Shown here: piece by piece, positions 4,661 to 10,412 of the stretch
How the letters are laid out: every line of letters starts with the position of its first letter
Position numbering within the stretch: position 1 is the first letter of the stretch
Origin: an uncultured Eubacteriales bacterium
Lineage (GTDB): Bacteria; Bacillota; Clostridia; Oscillospirales; UMGS1783
Direction of reading: 5' to 3'
Assembly: GCA_900555065.1 (NCBI GenBank)
Contig: USJY01000024.1
Location: forward strand, 1-10,490
DNA: 10,490 nucleotides
Translations under genes and position numbers: made by a program
Notes under the pieces: generated by a model
What the model was told of the DNA's origin: nothing
Databases searched by the model: none
Seen by the model: the letters and a program-made list of their open reading frames with translations, nothing else

Positions 4661-4870
4661 TATGGTTCAATGTGGTTGAGCCGCGCCCAGCCCAGACCTG
4701 CGGTACGGCCATGCGCCCGTGCCAGCGCCGCGAACGGGGTCGCACGCCGACCGCCGTCTGCCAAAACTCGTCTCCGGCCCGGCGCTACCGACCCCCGCCC
4801 CGATTTTTCGGCGAAACGAACGCCTCCCGGCCCGCCATAAATGCCGATCCCGCGTTCCGTTTTAAGCTCG
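4661..4870. other. Gene-free spacer before the tandem repeats
   Basis: GC-rich DNA with no supported gene, RNA or promoter on either strand. The open frame through it on the + strand has no ribosome binding site and runs into the tandem-repeat array. Confidence 0.6.
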
Positions 4871-5150
4871 CCGCACCCGGTCTTAGCGCGCCGCACCCGG
4901 TCTTAGCGCGCCGCACCCACCCTTTACACGCCGCACCCGGTCTTAGCGCGCCGCACCCATCCTTAGTGCGCCGCACCCGGCCTGTGCGCCCCGCACCCGG
5001 CCTGTGCGCACTGCCCCCGGCCTTAGCGCACCGCGCTCGGTCTTAGCGCGCCGCACCCGGCCTGTGCGCCCTGCCCCCGGCCTCAGCGCGCCGCGCTCGG
5101 TCTTAGCGCGCCGCACCCATCCTTAACACGCCGCACCCGGTCTTTGCTCG
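4871..5150. repeat. Tandem array of fourteen 20-bp units
   Basis: Fourteen head-to-tail units of exactly 20 bases, without a single indel. Consensus is CCGCACCCGGTCTTAGCGCG, seen unchanged at 4871, 4891 and 4931. Variants fall into classes, for example second halves reading CCTGTGCGCC/A (4971, 4991, 5051) and first halves CTGCCCCCGG (5011, 5071) or CCGCGCTCGG (5031, 5091). Units 7-9 (4991-5050) and 10-12 (5051-5110) are 57/60 identical, so a 60-bp block was duplicated as a unit. A 20-base period is not a multiple of three, and the frames have no ribosome binding site, so coding is unlikely. There are no unique spacers, so it is not a CRISPR array. It sits between two transcription units. Confidence 0.97.
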
Positions 5151-5254: not shown

Positions 5255-5276
5255 CACATGAGCACATGTTCATATG
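5255..5276. promoter_or_regulatory. SmtB/CadC-type operator
   Basis: Inverted repeat with a 2-base centre: CACATGAGCA (5255-5264), CA, TGTTCATATG (5267-5276); eight of ten positions are symmetric. It matches the 'ATGAACA...TGTTCAT' core known for SmtB/CadC/ZiaR-type ArsR repressors. It begins at the predicted transcription start and precedes the regulator's own Shine-Dalgarno sequence, so binding would block transcription. Confidence 0.88.
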
Positions 5277-5291
5277 AGGAGGCGAACAGAT

Positions 5292-5657
5292 GTGAGGGCG
5301 GAGAAAGAGACGGTCGCGACCTGTGAGGTTACGCACGACCACAAAGACGCTGTGGAAAAGCTGGAAAACGATATGCCGGACGAGGAATTGCTGTACGACC
5401 TGGCGGAGCTGTTCAAGGTTTTTGGGGACAGTACGCGCATTAAAATTCTGTATGCGCTGCGCCAGTCCGAGATGTGCGTGTGCGACATTGCGGAGCTTCT
5501 GCACATGACGCAGTCCGCCATATCCCATCAGCTCCGGGTGCTCAAGCAGGCGCAGCTGGTCAAATTTCGGCGCGAAGGCAAGAGCGTGCTTTACTCCCTT
5601 GCCGACTCGCATGTGCACGCCATCATAGACCAGGGGATGGACCACGTGGGCGAATGA
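5292..5657 (+). CDS. ArsR/SmtB-family metal-sensing repressor (CadC/ZiaR-like)
   Basis: 121-residue winged-helix repressor that should release its operator on binding Zn, Cd or Pb. LFKVFGDSTRIKILYAL (40-56) is the typical ArsR entry; the recognition helix is MTQSAISHQLRVL (72-84), then the wing KFRREGKSVLYSL. Two metal sites are visible. The alpha3N-type site has C62 and C64 in EMCVCDIA plus N-terminal C11 and H15; staphylococcal CadC has cysteine at the equivalent of H15. The alpha5 site has D105, H107, H118 and E121, with the SmtB spacing (D-x-H, then +11 His and +14 Glu), E121 being the last residue. GTG 5292 is chosen because AGGAGG (5277-5282) lies nine bases upstream; the in-frame ATG 5274 has no ribosome binding site, overlaps the operator and would start before that AGGAGG. 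First gene of the metal operon. Confidence 0.93.
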   Translation: MRAEKETVATCEVTHDHKDAVEKLENDMPDEELLYDLAELFKVFGDSTRIKILYALRQSEMCVCDIAELLHMTQSAISHQLRVLKQAQLVKFRREGKSVLYSLADSHVHAIIDQGMDHVGE

Positions 5658-5754
5658 AGACCGCGGGCTGTCCCGCCTTTATCGCCCGCGCCGGGGATAT
5701 GGAAAAAGCCGGCCAGCGCCCGTGCGCAGAGGTTGGGAAAAGCGCGCGGGCAAT

Positions 5755-5773
5755 ACACATGAGAATATTCTAT
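5755..5773. promoter_or_regulatory. Second operator-like site upstream of the HMA gene
   Basis: ACACATGAG (5755-5763) repeats exactly the start of the first operator (5254-5262). It overlaps a perfect 10-base palindrome AGAATATTCT (5762-5771). Both sites sit 14-15 bases before an AGGAGG ribosome binding site. It could be a weak secondary repressor site or a diverged duplicate of the leader; symmetry beyond ten bases is poor. Confidence 0.35.
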
Positions 5774-5791
5774 CACAGGAGGAAAGCATCT

Positions 5792-6010
5792 ATGAAAAAG
5801 ACGTATAAGCTGGAAAATCTCGACTGCGCCAACTGCGCGGCCCGTATGGAAAACGCAATCCGCCGTCTGGACGGCGTGCAGAGCGCCGCGGTTAGCTTCA
5901 TGGCGCAGAAACTGGTGCTGGAGGCCGACGACACGCGTTTTGACGAAGTGTTCAAGCAGGTCGTGAAAGCCTGTAAAAAGGTGGAGCCTGACCTTGTGAT
6001 TCAGGCGTAG
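5792..6010 (+). CDS. Free-standing HMA-domain heavy-metal-binding protein
   Basis: 72-residue protein consisting of a single ferredoxin-like HMA domain, normally found in metallochaperones and at the N-terminus of P1B ATPases. The metal site is LDCANCAARME: C12 and C15 in CxxC, preceded by D11. An aspartate before CxxC is the pattern of ZntA-type Zn/Pb/Cd domains rather than copper chaperones (usually M-x-C). No signal peptide, so cytosolic. AGGAGG at 5777-5782 lies nine bases before the ATG and fixes the start; the frame stays open far upstream but overlaps the regulator gene. The ATPase gene begins 18 bases after its stop. Since that ATPase lacks its own HMA domain, this protein probably supplies the metal-binding function in trans. 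Confidence 0.92.
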   Translation: MKKTYKLENLDCANCAARMENAIRRLDGVQSAAVSFMAQKLVLEADDTRFDEVFKQVVKACKKVEPDLVIQA

Positions 6011-6028
6011 AAAGGGGAGGCGGCGGAT

Positions 6029-7906
6029 ATGTCGAAACGGCAGCTTCGTACGCTTGTGCGGATCCTGGTCGGCGCAGCCTTCTTTGTCCTTGCCGTGCTG
6101 CTGCCGGTCCAGGAATATGTCCCCGCGGCGTACGCGTTTTATGCAAAGCTCGCGCTGTTTTTGGTCCCCTATCTGATTATCGGGTACGATGTGCTGCTGA
6201 AGGCTGCGCGCAATATCGGACACGGTCAGGTGTTCGACGAGAACTTTTTAATGTGTATCGCAACAATCGGCGCGTTTTGCATTGACCAGTACCCGGAGGC
6301 CGTTGCCGTCATGCTCTTCTATCAGGTGGGCGAGCTGTTCCAGGCCTATGCCGTAGGCCGCTCGCGTCGTTCCATTGCGGCGCTGATGGATATCCGTCCG
6401 GATATTGCCAACCTGGAACGCGGCGGCGAAGTTGTGCAAGTCGATCCCGAAACCGTCCAGGTCGGGGATGTAATCGTCGTCAAGCCCGGCGAACGCGTCC
6501 CGCTCGACGGCACGGTCCTTGCGGGCGCGTCGGCGCTCGACACTTCGGCTCTTACGGGCGAATCCCTGCCGCGCGAGGTCGCGGCGGGCAGCGAGGTCGT
6601 CAGCGGCTGCATTAACCTGAGCGGTCTGCTGCGCATCCGGGTTGCAAAGGAGTTCGGTCAGTCGACAGTCTCCAAAATACTGGAGCTTGTGGAAAATGCG
6701 AGCGAGAAAAAGGCGCGCTCGGAAAACTTCATCACAAAATTCGCGCGCTATTATACGCCGGCCGTCGTCGTAGCCGCCGTCCTGCTCGCCGTCGTGCCGC
6801 CCTTGTTCACAGGCGCGTGGTCCGAATGGGTCCGGCGCGCGCTTATCTTCCTCGTCATCTCCTGTCCCTGCGCGCTCGTCATCTCGGTTCCGCTCAGTTT
6901 TTTCGGCGGCATCGGCGGCGCTTCGCGCTGCGGCATACTCGTCAAAGGCGCGGCCTATCTCGAGTCGCTCGCCCGGACGAAAACGGTCGTGTTTGACAAG
7001 ACCGGCACGCTCACCAAGGGCACGTTCCGCGTCACCGCCCTGCACCCCGGCTCTATTTCCGAACAGCAGCTGCTGGAGTACGCGGCGCTGGCCGAAAGCT
7101 ACTCCAAACACCCCATTTCCCAGTCCCTGCTGGCAGCCTATGGCAGGCAGCCCGACCCGGCCCGCGTCTCGGAAGTGGAGGAAATTGCCGGGCACGGCGT
7201 CGCCGCCACGGTCGACGGCCGGCGCATTTACGCGGGCAACGGCAAGCTCATGGCCCGCGTCGGTGCGAGTTATCGCGACTGCCATCTGCCCGGCACCATC
7301 GTCCATGTCGCCGTCGACGGCGTGTACGAAGGACATATCGTCATCTCCGACGAGATGAAGGAGGATGCGAAAGAGGCGGTCGCAGGCCTGAAGGCGGCCG
7401 GCGTGACAAAAACGCTTATGCTGACAGGCGACCGCCGCGCAGTCGGCGAACATGTCGCGGCCGAGCTGGGCCTGGACGGCGTCTATGCCGAACTGCTGCC
7501 CGCGGACAAGGTTGAGAAAGTGGAACAGCTTTTGCAGGAGGAACCGGCCGGCGGCGTGCTCGCCTTTGTCGGCGACGGTATCAACGACGCGCCCGTTCTC
7601 TCCCGTGCGGATATCGGCATCGCGATGGGCGCAATGGGCTCAGATGCGGCCATCGAAGCGGCCGACGTTGTGCTGATGGACGACAAGCCCTCCAAAATCG
7701 CGCTTGCAGTCCGCATCGCGCGCCGCACCCTGCGCATTGCGCGCCAGAACGTGGTGTTCGCGCTAGCGGTCAAGGGTATTATGCTGCTGATGGGCGCGTT
7801 TGGCGTTGCCAACCTGTGGGAGGCTGTCTTTGCGGATGTGGGCGTATCGGTTATCGCCATTCTCAATGCGATGCGCGCCCTCTCGATTCGTCCCTATCGG
7901 AAATAG
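6029..7906 (+). CDS. cadA: P1B-type heavy-metal (Zn/Cd/Pb) exporting ATPase
   Basis: 625-residue membrane pump that uses ATP to export divalent soft metals from the cytosol. Motifs in order: actuator TGES (176-179), metal-binding CPC in the sixth membrane helix (279-281), phosphorylation loop DKTGT with D323, HP (361-362) in the nucleotide-binding domain, MLTGD (464-468) and VGDGINDAP (514-522). In the last two helices, K582 and D603 (in FADVGVS) correspond to the lysine and aspartate typical of Zn/Cd/Pb (P1B-2) pumps. The N-terminus begins with membrane helices (about 10-25, 37-53) within a few residues of the start, so the usual N-terminal HMA domain(s) are absent; a single HMA protein is encoded just upstream. 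GGGGAGG (6014-6020) supports the ATG. Co-transcribed with the ArsR and HMA genes. Zn versus Cd preference cannot be told from sequence. Confidence 0.95.
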   Translation: MSKRQLRTLVRILVGAAFFVLAVLLPVQEYVPAAYAFYAKLALFLVPYLIIGYDVLLKAARNIGHGQVFDENFLMCIATIGAFCIDQYPEAVAVMLFYQVGELFQAYAVGRSRRSIAALMDIRPDIANLERGGEVVQVDPETVQVGDVIVVKPGERVPLDGTVLAGASALDTSALTGESLPREVAAGSEVVSGCINLSGLLRIRVAKEFGQSTVSKILELVENASEKKARSENFITKFARYYTPAVVVAAVLLAVVPPLFTGAWSEWVRRALIFLVISCPCALVISVPLSFFGGIGGASRCGILVKGAAYLESLARTKTVVFDKTGTLTKGTFRVTALHPGSISEQQLLEYAALAESYSKHPISQSLLAAYGRQPDPARVSEVEEIAGHGVAATVDGRRIYAGNGKLMARVGASYRDCHLPGTIVHVAVDGVYEGHIVISDEMKEDAKEAVAGLKAAGVTKTLMLTGDRRAVGEHVAAELGLDGVYAELLPADKVEKVEQLLQEEPAGGVLAFVGDGINDAPVLSRADIGIAMGAMGSDAAIEAADVVLMDDKPSKIALAVRIARRTLRIARQNVVFALAVKGIMLLMGAFGVANLWEAVFADVGVSVIAILNAMRALSIRPYRK

Positions 7907-8334: not shown

Positions 8335-8362
8335 TTGACAAACACGTAAAATCGAATATAAT
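8335..8362 (+). promoter_or_regulatory. Promoter of the T-box/ligase unit
   Basis: TTGACA (8335-8340) and TATAAT (8357-8362), both consensus, with a 16-base spacer. Predicted start is near 8369, about a dozen bases before Stem I of the T-box leader. Confidence 0.92.
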
Positions 8363-8381
8363 AAAATATAATCCAAATATT

Positions 8382-8628
8382 AAAGCGCGATGACAAAGAG
8401 TAGTAGATTCGCTATTTCCGCCATAGAGAGGGAGCGCCGCCGGCTGAAAGCCTCCCGCGGACACTGGCGTTTCGAACTCGCTTTTGAGCGGCTTTCGGGC
8501 GGCCCGCCGTTATACGGGCGGCGTTTCTTATGACGCGTAGAGCGGGCTGCGCCTTTTCTGCAGCCAATCCGGGTGGTACCGCGGAAGTGTATCTTTCGTC
8601 CCTGTGCAAATGAGCACAGGGATTTTTT
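8382..8628 (+). promoter_or_regulatory. T-box riboswitch, probable tRNA-Leu (CUC specifier)
   Basis: Leader RNA that reads through its terminator when a matching uncharged tRNA binds. Stem I base pairs 8382-8388 with 8488-8495, followed by a GATGACA/TTGA kink-turn region (8389-8395, 8484-8487), AAG/CTT (8396-8398 with 8481-8483) and the AGTA strand (8402-8405) facing GAA (8474-8476). Reading the triplet after GAA, as in the B. subtilis tyrS leader (GAA-UAC-A), gives CTC at 8477-8479 followed by G: a leucine codon. The distal arm has AGAGAGGGAG and CTGAAAGCCTCCC. Stem III pairs GGCTGC (8545-8550) with GCAGCC (8560-8565). The T-box core GGGTGGTACCGCG is at 8571-8583; its TGGT (8574-8577) suits a tRNA ending ACCA, consistent with A73 of tRNA-Leu. 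The T-box call is near certain; the specifier is a hand fold. Confidence 0.95.
8599..8628 (+). terminator. Regulated terminator of the T-box leader
   Basis: Perfect nine-pair stem TCCCTGTGC (8599-8607) and GCACAGGGA (8614-8622), six-base loop, six T. The TCCC of its left arm is also the partner of GGG in the T-box core, so the antiterminator and terminator are mutually exclusive. Confidence 0.95.
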
Positions 8629-8681
8629 CGTATTTGGAGAACTACAGTAAATCCCCCGGCGGGGAGAAGGAGCGATTGGAT

Positions 8682-10334
8682 ATGGACGAATTACTCAAAA
8701 TGACCTTGACCGAACTGCTGCAGGAGCGGGTGCGGCTGCACGGCGACCGGTTGGCCTACCGCTACACCGATCGCGACTACACACGCACCTATCGTGAATT
8801 TGACGCGGAGACGGATGAGATCGCCAAGGGATTTCTGGCCATGGGCCTAAAAAAAGGCGACCATATCGCGATCTGGGCGCCGAACATCCCGGAATGGGTT
8901 CTCACCCTGTTTGCGACGGCGAAAATCGGCGGTGTGCTCGTCACGGTCAATACAAACTACAAGGTGTTCGAGCTGGAATACCTGCTCAGGCAGTCGGATT
9001 CGGCCGCCCTTGTCATGGCGCAGTCGTATAAGGGCACGCGCTACGCCGATATTGTAAACGAACTGCTGCCCGGTCTCGCCGCGCACAATCCGTCAGAACC
9101 GCTGAACCGGGAAGAGCTGCCGTATCTGCGCCATATTTTTTATACCGGTGAAGAGGGCATGCCCGGCACCACGCCGTTCTGGTCGCTCAAAGAGCTGGGC
9201 CGGAGCGTCCCGGACGAGGTCCTCGAGGCGGCAAAGCGCGACCAGCACTACGACGACGTGGTGAATATGCAGTACACTTCGGGCACGACGGGCTTTCCCA
9301 AAGGTGTCATGCTCACCCATTATAACATCATTAACAACGGCAAGAATATAGGCGACTGCATGAAGTTTACGGAGAACGACAAACTCTGTATTCCCGTCCC
9401 CTTTTTCCACTGCTTCGGCCTGGTGCTGGCCACGCTCGCCTCTATCACGCACAGCACCGCCATGGTACCCATTGATGTGTTTGACGCGAAAAAGGTCATG
9501 GAAGCCATACACACCGAACGCTGTACCGCCGTGCACGGCGTGCCGACCATGTTTATCGCGATGCTGGAGCACCCCGACTTTTCCAAATATGATTTTACCT
9601 CTCTGCGCACGGGGATCATGGCGGGTTCTCCCTGCCCGATTAAGGTGATGCGCCAGGTCGTGGACCAGATGCATATGCCCGAAATCACCATTGCCTACGG
9701 CATGACGGAATCGTCCCCCGTGAGCGCCCAGACCACGACGGACGACCCGCTTGAGCTGCGCGTGGCCACCGTCGGCAGGGTACACCCGCACGTCGAGGTC
9801 AAGATTGTCGATATTGAGACGGGCGAACCCGTCGGTCCGGGTGTGGAGGGCGAATACTGCACGCGCGGCTACAGCGTCATGAAAGGCTATTACAAAATGC
9901 CTGAGGCGACGGCCCTTGCCATCGACAAGGACGGCTGGCTCCATTCAGGCGACGTTGCGAGCGTGGATGAAAACGGCTACTTCCGCATCACAGGCCGGAT
10001 CAAGGATATGATTATCCGCGGCGGCGAGAACATATACCCCAAGGAAATCGAAGATTTTCTCTATACCAACCCCAAGGTCAAGGACGTGCAGGTGATCGGC
10101 GTGCCCAGCCGGAAATACGGCGAAGAAGTCATGGCCGTCATCATCCCCAAAGAAGGGGTCGAAGTCACTGAGGAGGAAATCCGCCAGTTTGCACTGGAGC
10201 GGATTGCGCGTTATAAAACGCCGAAATACGTCCGGTTTGTGGACGCGTTCCCCATGAACGCGGCGGGCAAGATACTCAAATATAAAATGCGTGAAATGTA
10301 CGGTGCGGAGATCAGCGAGAAAGAAGCCATATAG
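8682..10334 (+). CDS. AMP-forming acyl-CoA synthetase, YngI-like
   Basis: 550-residue adenylate-forming ligase: activates a carboxylic acid with ATP to the acyl-AMP, then transfers it to CoA. Visible motifs: P-loop TSGTTGFPKG (199-208), YGMTE (339-343), HSGD with D424, the hinge GRIKDMIIRGGENIYP (438-453), and catalytic K530 in NAAGKILKYK near the C-terminus. The full length and the stretch IPVPFFHCFG (237-246) closely resemble B. subtilis YngI, which lies in a leucine/branched-chain catabolic cluster. Substrate cannot be read off; short or medium, perhaps branched, acids are plausible. ATG 8682 is preceded by AAGGAG (8667-8672). The frame is open back to a GTG at 8604, but that lies inside the T-box terminator stem and is rejected. 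It is the only gene in its unit, controlled by a leucine-type T-box and closed by its own terminator. Confidence 0.94.
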   Translation: MDELLKMTLTELLQERVRLHGDRLAYRYTDRDYTRTYREFDAETDEIAKGFLAMGLKKGDHIAIWAPNIPEWVLTLFATAKIGGVLVTVNTNYKVFELEYLLRQSDSAALVMAQSYKGTRYADIVNELLPGLAAHNPSEPLNREELPYLRHIFYTGEEGMPGTTPFWSLKELGRSVPDEVLEAAKRDQHYDDVVNMQYTSGTTGFPKGVMLTHYNIINNGKNIGDCMKFTENDKLCIPVPFFHCFGLVLATLASITHSTAMVPIDVFDAKKVMEAIHTERCTAVHGVPTMFIAMLEHPDFSKYDFTSLRTGIMAGSPCPIKVMRQVVDQMHMPEITIAYGMTESSPVSAQTTTDDPLELRVATVGRVHPHVEVKIVDIETGEPVGPGVEGEYCTRGYSVMKGYYKMPEATALAIDKDGWLHSGDVASVDENGYFRITGRIKDMIIRGGENIYPKEIEDFLYTNPKVKDVQVIGVPSRKYGEEVMAVIIPKEGVEVTEEEIRQFALERIARYKTPKYVRFVDAFPMNAAGKILKYKMREMYGAEISEKEAI

Positions 10335-10370: not shown

Positions 10371-10412
10371 AGCGCGGGGCGTGCCCTTTTGGGTGCGTCC
10401 CGCGCTTTTTTT
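10371..10412 (+). terminator. Rho-independent terminator of the ligase gene
   Basis: Sixteen-pair stem (10371-10386 with 10391-10406) including three G-T wobbles, TTTT loop, outer arms AGCGCGGG and CCCGCGCT, followed by a T-run to 10412. It lies 36 bases after the stop codon. Confidence 0.92.

What the first reader, a model, noticed from the sequence alone, without database searches (positions are those of the whole stretch)
8382..10334. Leucine-type T-box controls an acyl-CoA ligase
T-boxes usually govern aminoacyl-tRNA synthetases, amino acid biosynthesis or transport. Here the only gene between the T-box and the next terminator is a YngI-like AMP-forming acyl-CoA ligase. The specifier reads as CTC (Leu) when the AGTA/GAA loop is aligned to tyrS, and the TGGT bulge fits tRNA-Leu A73. 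Hypothesis: on leucine starvation the cell activates isovalerate (or a related branched acid) to the CoA ester, which a ferredoxin-dependent 2-oxoacid oxidoreductase could reductively carboxylate to 2-oxoisocaproate and then leucine, a route described for some anaerobes. Seen: T-box, codon, ligase. Inferred: substrate and pathway.
Basis: partly seen in the sequence, partly recalled or inferred. Interest (0 to 1): 0.78.

Follow-up and report, generated by a model that had tools for sequence, protein, structure and literature searches.

The report
Leucine-sensing switch on acid-activating enzyme
An RNA switch that senses leucine shortage sits in front of an enzyme that probably activates isovaleric acid so that the cell can rebuild leucine from it, and related anaerobes carry matching switches on enzymes for the acids related to isoleucine, valine and phenylalanine.

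Summary
A full-length T-box leader (window 8381-8606; Rfam RF00230, 84.8 bits, E 1e-17, below the 93-bit gathering score) precedes a single acyl-CoA ligase gene (8682-10334). The specifier is CUC (8477-8479) and the bulge UGGU, so it should read tRNA-Leu. The pairing recurs: T-boxes precede the ligase in 22 of 80 fetched loci, and a Stem I lies upstream in 50 of 110 regions of a class-wide survey. The specifiers are CUC 22 and CUG 1 (first set with the window) and CUC 49 and CUG 1 (survey). In relatives' genomes other acid-CoA ligases carry other T-boxes: MACS/MbcS-like ligases Ile (10) or Val (4), PaaK ligases Phe (8). Each amino acid fits the acid one carbon shorter than its 2-oxoacid. VorB is over its cut-off in 21 of 21 of these genomes. 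Best reading: leucine starvation turns on an isovalerate-CoA ligase that feeds the isovalerate carboxylation route to leucine. Substrate and flux are inferred. The main rival is priming of iso-branched fatty acids. A TIM-barrel domain fused to the ligase in many relatives is unexplained. The window's own genome is not held.

The parts
8335..8362 (+). sigma-70-type promoter, TTGACA (8335-8340) and TATAAT (8357-8362), 16-bp spacer
   Evidence: sequence
8381..8606 (+). T-box leader (Stem I to antiterminator)
   Evidence: Rfam RF00230, 84.8 bits, E 1e-17
8477..8479 (+). specifier CUC (Leu), preceded by GAA 8474-8476, followed by G 8480
   Evidence: covariance-model alignment, coordinates, recurring in relatives
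8574..8577 (+). antiterminator bulge UGGU, expected to pair with a tRNA ending A73-CCA
   Evidence: pairing rule in PMC7778990 (passages)
8595..8602 (+). antiterminator 3' arm, overlapping the terminator 5' arm
8600..8630 (+). leader intrinsic terminator
   Evidence: -15.7 kcal/mol, z -5.7
8661..8672 (+). Shine-Dalgarno-like GGGGAGAAGGAG
   Evidence: sequence
8682..10334 (+). AMP-forming acyl-CoA ligase, 550 aa; predicted isovalerate-CoA ligase
   Evidence: NCBIfam PRK12583 773 bits, under its 832 cut-off; homologues
10372..10412 (+). intrinsic terminator after the ligase
   Evidence: -33.6 kcal/mol, z -7.6

Best explanation
A transcriptional T-box riboswitch specific for tRNA-Leu (reading CUC) controls an acyl-CoA ligase. 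When leucine is short, uncharged tRNA-Leu pairs with the specifier and with the UGGU bulge, the antiterminator forms and the ligase is made. The ligase most likely converts isovalerate (3-methylbutyrate) to isovaleryl-CoA. A ferredoxin-dependent branched-chain 2-oxoacid oxidoreductase (VorBAC type) then reductively carboxylates it to 2-oxoisocaproate, which is transaminated to leucine. Shown by sequence: the leader, the codon, the bulge, the terminator overlap and the single gene behind it; recurrence of the Leu T-box-ligase pair in many Clostridia; Ile, Val and Phe T-boxes on other acid-CoA ligases. Inferred: tRNA binding, the ligase's substrate, the direction of VOR, the flux to leucine, and the presence of VOR in the window's own genome.
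For: (1) T-box at the window. (2) Recurrence: 22 of 80 homologous loci have a T-box upstream of the ligase or of its fused form, 17 of them over Rfam's gathering score and 5 by pattern or Stem I model. In the class survey a Stem I lies upstream in 50 of 110 regions (23 of 31 stand-alone, 27 of 79 fused), and a search by T-box pattern alone found 46 of those 50 and no others. Specifiers: CUC 22 and CUG 1 with the window, CUC 49 and CUG 1 in the survey. (3) Parallel switches in the 21 genomes reached through T-box-ligase loci: of 27 MACS-ligase places 14 have a T-box, 10 AUC (Ile) and 4 GUA (Val); of 33 PaaK places examined (of 41 found) 8 have a T-box, all UUC (Phe). (4) Characterised kin of the MACS ligases fit their codons: MbcS takes 2-methylbutyrate and isobutyrate but isovalerate poorly (PMC10026030, abstract and passages); the nearest solved structure is 3ETC, Methanosarcina Macs, which prefers 2-methylbutyrate (PMC10455477, passages). 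A separate isovalerate ligase would then be needed. (5) In 6 of 80 loci, all deltaproteobacterial (Geobacter-type), the ligase homologue lies downstream of an HMG-CoA lyase gene, in 5 of the 6 with a biotin carboxylase too. (6) VorB over the cut-off in 21 of 21 genomes (3 of 14 controls); IOR in 19 of 21 (2 of 14 controls). (7) The isovalerate-to-leucine route is reported in the rumen (PMC7356843, passages citing Allison 1962 and 1966).
Against: The window's genome is not held, so VOR and leu genes were not tested there. leuA is over the cut-off in 17 of 21 T-box-ligase genomes. VorB is common in anaerobes (no T-box-free clostridial control was run), and no T-box was seen before the vor genes by pattern in the loci read. 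52 of 79 fused and 8 of 31 stand-alone ligases in the survey show no Stem I. The TIM barrel fused to or following the ligase has no place in this pathway. The base after the specifier, expected to be a purine, is C in L071 and L073 and C or T in 8 of 50 survey leaders. The pattern asked for CTC or CTG, so that count alone is not blind; the raw leaders are.
Confidence: 0.66

Rival explanations
1. The ligase serves membrane lipids: when leucine is short, imported isovalerate is activated to isovaleryl-CoA to prime iso-branched fatty acids, as MbcS does with 2-methylbutyrate and isobutyrate in Staphylococcus aureus. No leucine is made.
For: MbcS has this role for its acids (PMC10026030, abstract and passages) and is the best-scoring NCBIfam family of a MACS ligase from these genomes, though far under its cut-off (380 of 850 bits). 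The intermediate is the same, so both uses may coexist.
Against: The Phe T-box-PaaK units have no branched-fatty-acid logic. VOR genes lie next to a branched-chain amino acid operon (read by eye) in G021 and G018 and next to a MACS ligase in G012.
Confidence: 0.2
2. The ligase acts on another acid linked to leucine metabolism and to the xylose-isomerase-like TIM barrel that is fused to it or follows it in many relatives; isovalerate is incidental.
For: 79 of 110 survey ligases have 231-347 open codons in frame upstream; in the two fused loci annotated (L065, L069) the extra part is PF01261, and 7 fused and 7 separate copies were found among the 80 loci. The barrel keeps invariant E, D and H residues typical of this metal-binding fold (role recalled) and folds like sugar epimerases.
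Against: The window and 31 of 110 survey ligases have no such fusion. The Ile/Val/Phe parallels predict a simple branched or aryl acid. Some Geobacter-type homologues sit with isovaleryl-CoA degradation genes.
Confidence: 0.1
3. The specifier is UCG/UCA (Ser), one base downstream, and the switch senses serine.
For: GAA-C-UCG has the common one-base spacer after GAA.
Against: UGGU calls for A73, whereas tRNA-Ser has G73 (recalled). L004 reads GAA-CUG-A, which in the shifted frame would be UGA, a stop, and the survey has a second CUG. GAA-G-CUC and GAA-U-CUC relatives keep CUC with a one-base spacer.
Confidence: 0.02
4. A catabolic ligase of leucine or isovalerate breakdown that happens to lie behind a T-box.
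For: Homologues in six deltaproteobacterial loci lie with HMG-CoA lyase, five of them with a biotin carboxylase.
Against: A T-box turns genes on when the amino acid is scarce, the wrong sign for catabolism; no such catabolic genes were seen in the window.
Confidence: 0.04

Closest known systems
T-box riboswitch (RF00230), leucine type, as on leuA
   Same: Full-length leader, specifier CUC, UGGU bulge, antiterminator/terminator exclusion; the leuA leader in genome G021 reads CUC too (locus L115, by eye)
   Different: The controlled gene is an acyl-CoA ligase and not one of the usual leucine synthesis, transport or charging genes
Isovalerate carboxylation pathway of leucine synthesis in the rumen (Allison 1962, 1966; seen only as cited in PMC7356843)
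   Same: Same predicted reactions in anaerobes
   Different: Here a candidate ligase gene and its regulation are proposed; the original papers were not read
MbcS of Staphylococcus aureus / MacsMa (3ETC)
   Same: AMP-forming synthetases for short branched acids; relatives of the Ile/Val T-box ligases of these genomes
   Different: The window ligase is of another family (PRK12583 type), and MbcS uses isovalerate poorly
iorAB-paaK operon with a conserved upstream element in Geobacter (PMC2700814, passages)
   Same: Aryl-acid CoA ligase and ferredoxin oxidoreductase tied to an aromatic amino acid
   Different: There a conserved element labelled tryptophan; here Phe T-boxes before paaK in Clostridia

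Membership tests
T-box riboswitch (RF00230) | Match to the covariance model over its full length | tested here: met
   Positions 1-219 of 219, E 1e-17; the score of 84.8 lies under the 93 gathering score, so met by E-value only
T-box riboswitch (RF00230) | Conserved T-box sequence with UGGN bulge | tested here: met
   GGGUGGUACCGCGG at 8571-8584
T-box riboswitch (RF00230) | Antiterminator and terminator mutually exclusive | tested here: met
   The arms share 8600-8602
T-box riboswitch (RF00230) | Binding of the cognate tRNA and response to its charging | not testable with these tools
   Needs binding and transcription assays
Leucine T-box | Leu codon in the specifier, U at the bulge's fourth position | tested here: met
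   CUC and UGGU in the window; a Leu codon in the 22 relatives and the 50 survey leaders
Isovalerate carboxylation pathway | Isovalerate-CoA ligase activity | not testable with these tools
   Inferred only
Isovalerate carboxylation pathway | 2-oxoacid:ferredoxin oxidoreductase (VOR) in the same genome | tested here: inconclusive
   VorB in 21 of 21 relatives with the T-box-ligase; the window genome is not held
NCBIfam PRK12583 fatty acid CoA ligase | Score over the curated cut-off | tested here: not met
   773 against 832 bits; the nearest named family, not a member by its own cut-off

The most novel reading that the evidence does not exclude
Clostridia carry a T-box regulon of acid-salvage ligases: Leu-, Ile-, Val- and Phe-type T-boxes each control the CoA ligase for the acid one carbon shorter than that amino acid's 2-oxoacid (isovalerate, 2-methylbutyrate, isobutyrate, phenylacetate). 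These would be the missing genes, and the regulation, of the acid carboxylation route to amino acids, and the codon in the leader predicts each ligase's substrate.
Probability: 0.6. Interest if true: 0.75.

Novelty: new member of a known kind. Interest (0 to 1): 0.66.

Why it matters
The route from isovalerate, isobutyrate, 2-methylbutyrate and phenylacetate to amino acids in anaerobes is known from work of the 1960s (as cited in PMC7356843). If this reading is right, candidate genes for its activation step can be read off genomes, and the T-box codon tells which acid each ligase uses. That makes an old biochemical question directly testable.

Tried and rejected
Alternative specifiers (UCG Ser, CGA Arg, AAC Asn) were rejected by the bulge and the relatives. 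Replacement of leuABCD was rejected as a general rule, because leuA is over the cut-off in 17 of 21 genomes (9 of 14 controls); of the other four, G009 has it in two pieces on two contigs and G011, G013 and G014 give only weak hits. Only leuA was searched, not leuB, leuC or leuD.

The TIM barrel was aligned, profiled, folded and compared. The nearest structures are sugar epimerases and AsbF at 14-20% identity; no function could be assigned. A MACS survey with the query L130 returned 30 loci: the Stem I model found none, Rfam found none in the 15 given to it, and a loose pattern matched in 5 of 30, judged chance because the motif and Stem I did not fit. L130 itself belongs to a paralogue without a T-box. 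The survey was repeated with a T-box-bearing MACS: 17 of 291 genomes matched, and 8 of those 17 loci have a Stem I, all AUC; L351 has a T-box pattern but no Stem I hit, and the other 8 show neither.

The first T-box patterns were too narrow: the one missed L015 and L056 (so other loci of the 80 may be missed; Rfam was run on 35 of them), and the one was replaced. Model R1 has only 4 base pairs and was built from leaders with CUC or CUG, so it leans towards them; but it also found Ile-type (AUC) stems, and every T-box seen by pattern was also an R1 hit. A Lys/Ala-like reading of other T-boxes was by eye and was not pursued.

The tree holds 73 rows; eight loci (L007, L011, L023, L027, L046, L047, L055, L072) fell out because of the ORF choice, and L080, whose Stem I was found later, was still labelled as lacking a T-box. 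The label needs 9 changes against 18.5 in shuffles, so it is clustered but gained or lost repeatedly.

Literature searches in which no paper held all terms: T-box with acyl-CoA ligase, with phenylacetate-CoA ligase, with branched-chain and acyl-CoA synthetase; also reductive carboxylation with isovalerate and acyl-CoA synthetase. In the T-box survey PMC2494555 the word 'acyl' does not occur in the main text (12 passages read). The papers listed were judged from listings, and a few from passages. The library lacks most subscription papers, and two T-box papers asked for by id were not held, so 'not in print' is not claimed.

Full report
What is there. The window carries a promoter (TTGACA 8335-8340, TATAAT 8357-8362), a T-box leader (8381-8606), a leader terminator (8600-8630), a ribosome site (8661-8672), one gene of 550 codons (8682-10334) and a terminator (10372-10412). 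The gene product is an AMP-forming acyl-CoA ligase: its best NCBIfam family is PRK12583, 773 bits against a cut-off of 832. The closest protein listed from the large database is 92% identical, the next two 70%.

The switch reads leucine. In the covariance-model alignment the specifier columns hold CUC, after GAA and before G. Among relatives the spacer between the GAA element and the codon is 0 or 1 base, but the codon stays: with the window, 22 leaders read CUC and one (L004) reads CUG (that pattern asked for CTC or CTG, and the raw leaders are). L004 speaks against the shifted serine frame, which would read a stop there. The bulge is UGGU, which pairs with A73; tRNA-Leu has A73 and tRNA-Ser G73 (recalled).

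The pair recurs. Of 80 ligase loci fetched from named genomes, 22 have a T-box upstream of the ligase or of the gene that contains it: L001, L003-L006, L009, L010, L015, L029, L037, L038, L045, L046, L056, L065, L069-L074 and L077. Seventeen of these pass Rfam's gathering score; L046, L056, L065, L071 and L073 do not and rest on the T-box pattern and Stem I. L080 has a Stem I too and is not counted in the 22. Ten non-Bacillota and four Bacilli loci given to the Stem I model gave no hit. In a draw of 291 genomes of the class of G007, 117 have the ligase at E <= 1e-150; five of these were already in the first set. I had upstream DNA for 110 of the 117 (30 loci and 80 regions). A Stem I on the gene's strand was found in 50 of 110: 23 of 31 stand-alone ligases and 27 of 79 fused ones. 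The specifiers are CUC 49, CUG 1. A pattern search that does not use the model found T-boxes in 46 of the 110, all among those 50. The base after the codon is G 25, A 17, C 7, T 1.

Other ligases carry other T-boxes. In the 21 genomes reached through T-box-ligase loci (all of the 22 but L056) I looked upstream of two other ligase families. MACS type: 27 places in 18 of 21 genomes, 14 with a T-box on the gene's strand; 10 read AUC (G001, G002, G003, G005, G006, G009, G010, G011, G018, G021) and 4 read GUA (G002, G003, G009, G014). Of the 13 without one, two had little or no upstream DNA (L163, L166). PaaK type: 41 places, of which 33 were examined; 8 have a T-box (G001, G005, G006, G010, G011, G015, G017, G019), all UUC. 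In the class survey with a T-box-bearing MACS, 17 genomes matched and 8 of 17 loci have a Stem I, all AUC; two of those are genomes already counted. With another MACS paralogue as query none of 30 loci had one. Single genomes hold three such units: G006 has Leu, Ile and Phe; G002, G003 and G009 have Leu, Ile and Val.

Why this points to acids one carbon short. Isovalerate, 2-methylbutyrate, isobutyrate and phenylacetate are the acids that give, after CoA activation and reductive carboxylation, the 2-oxoacids of Leu, Ile, Val and Phe (established chemistry). The MACS family has characterised members. MbcS is selective for 2-methylbutyrate and isobutyrate and poor with isovalerate (KM over 500 uM; PMC10026030, abstract and passages); MbcS is the best-scoring family of one MACS ligase tested, under its cut-off. 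The nearest solved structure is 3ETC at 669 bits, which PMC10455477 (passages) names as Methanosarcina Macs with preference for 2-methylbutyrate. Thus the Ile and Val codons agree with known chemistry, and isovalerate would need a different ligase, which is what the Leu T-box marks.

Further context. In six of 80 loci, all deltaproteobacterial (L016, L018, L021, L025, L028, L031), the ligase homologue lies downstream of an HMG-CoA lyase gene, in five of them with a biotin carboxylase, that is, with what looks like isovaleryl-CoA breakdown; the other Geobacter-type loci did not show this within their flanks. Geobacter metallireducens uses isovalerate (PMC2700814, passage). VorB is over its cut-off in 21 of 21 T-box-ligase genomes and 3 of 14 controls, IOR in 19 of 21 and 2 of 14. 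In G018 and G021 VOR genes adjoin a branched-chain amino acid operon (genes named by eye); in G012 they adjoin a regulator and a MACS ligase. From the listed rows, the ligase and a MACS ligase lie within 8 kb on one contig in 11 genomes (G037, G072, G073, G081, G083, G108, G149, G157, G232, G277, G295); rows beyond the listing were not seen. VOR is widespread in anaerobes, so its presence alone is weak evidence.

What does not fit. leuA is present in most of these genomes (17 of 21), so leucine can be made otherwise. Many ligases, above all fused ones, lack the T-box (60 of 110). A xylose-isomerase-like TIM barrel is fused to the N-terminus of the ligase in L065, L067, L069, L071, L073, L075 and L080, and is a separate gene after it in L001, L003, L004, L006, L009, L014 and L037, with another gene between in L003 and L004; 79 of 110 survey ligases have an open frame upstream long enough for most or all of it. 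It keeps invariant residues of the metal site and folds like sugar epimerases, with no clear role here. The window's ligase has no such domain.

Rivals. The strongest is supply of isovaleryl-CoA for branched fatty acids, the role MbcS has for its acids. The Phe T-box-PaaK units and the VOR neighbourhoods favour amino acid synthesis, but both uses may coexist.

Novelty. The RNA is a T-box of the ordinary leucine type; the target is unusual. The carboxylation route is old biochemistry (PMC7356843, passages citing Allison). What seems new is the gene assignment and the amino-acid-matched set of switches. The searches showed me no report of it, in a library that lacks much of the T-box literature.

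Noticed in passing
L070 5793-5867; L074 5755-5829: A complete tRNA-Ala(GGC) gene lies inside the Leu T-box leader of the ligase, before the antiterminator, in two genera. Processing of that tRNA would cut the leader.
   Followed up: partly
L065, L067, L069, L071, L073, L075, L080; L001, L003, L004, L006, L009, L014, L037: A xylose-isomerase-like TIM barrel is fused to, or encoded after, the ligase; in L001, L006, L009 and L037 an amidohydrolase-like gene (PF04909 in L001) follows. Function unknown.
   Followed up: partly
L102 and L114 (genomes G016, G020): A T-box that reads like GCC (Ala) by eye stands ahead of what looks like an aminotransferase gene, with paaK about 3 kb and an IOR alpha gene about 4-5 kb further on the same contig.
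   Followed up: no
L095 1-600: Two antiterminator-like T-box motifs in tandem before a gene that looks like a substrate-binding protein.
   Followed up: no
rows with open frames of about 750-820 aa: Many MACS ligases of the class survey lie in frames about 200 codons longer than the ligase, so a fused domain is likely; not identified.
   Followed up: no
window 5274-7906: ArsR-type regulator, small metal-binding (HMA-like) protein and heavy-metal P-type ATPase in a row: an ordinary metal efflux cluster.
   Followed up: no
window 4860-5150: Array of imperfect GC-rich repeats (cgccgcacccggtcttagcg and variants) between genes.
   Followed up: no
L191 254-402 (genome G004): TwoAYGGAY RNA (RF01731, 47.1 bits) upstream of a paaK-type gene.
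   Followed up: no
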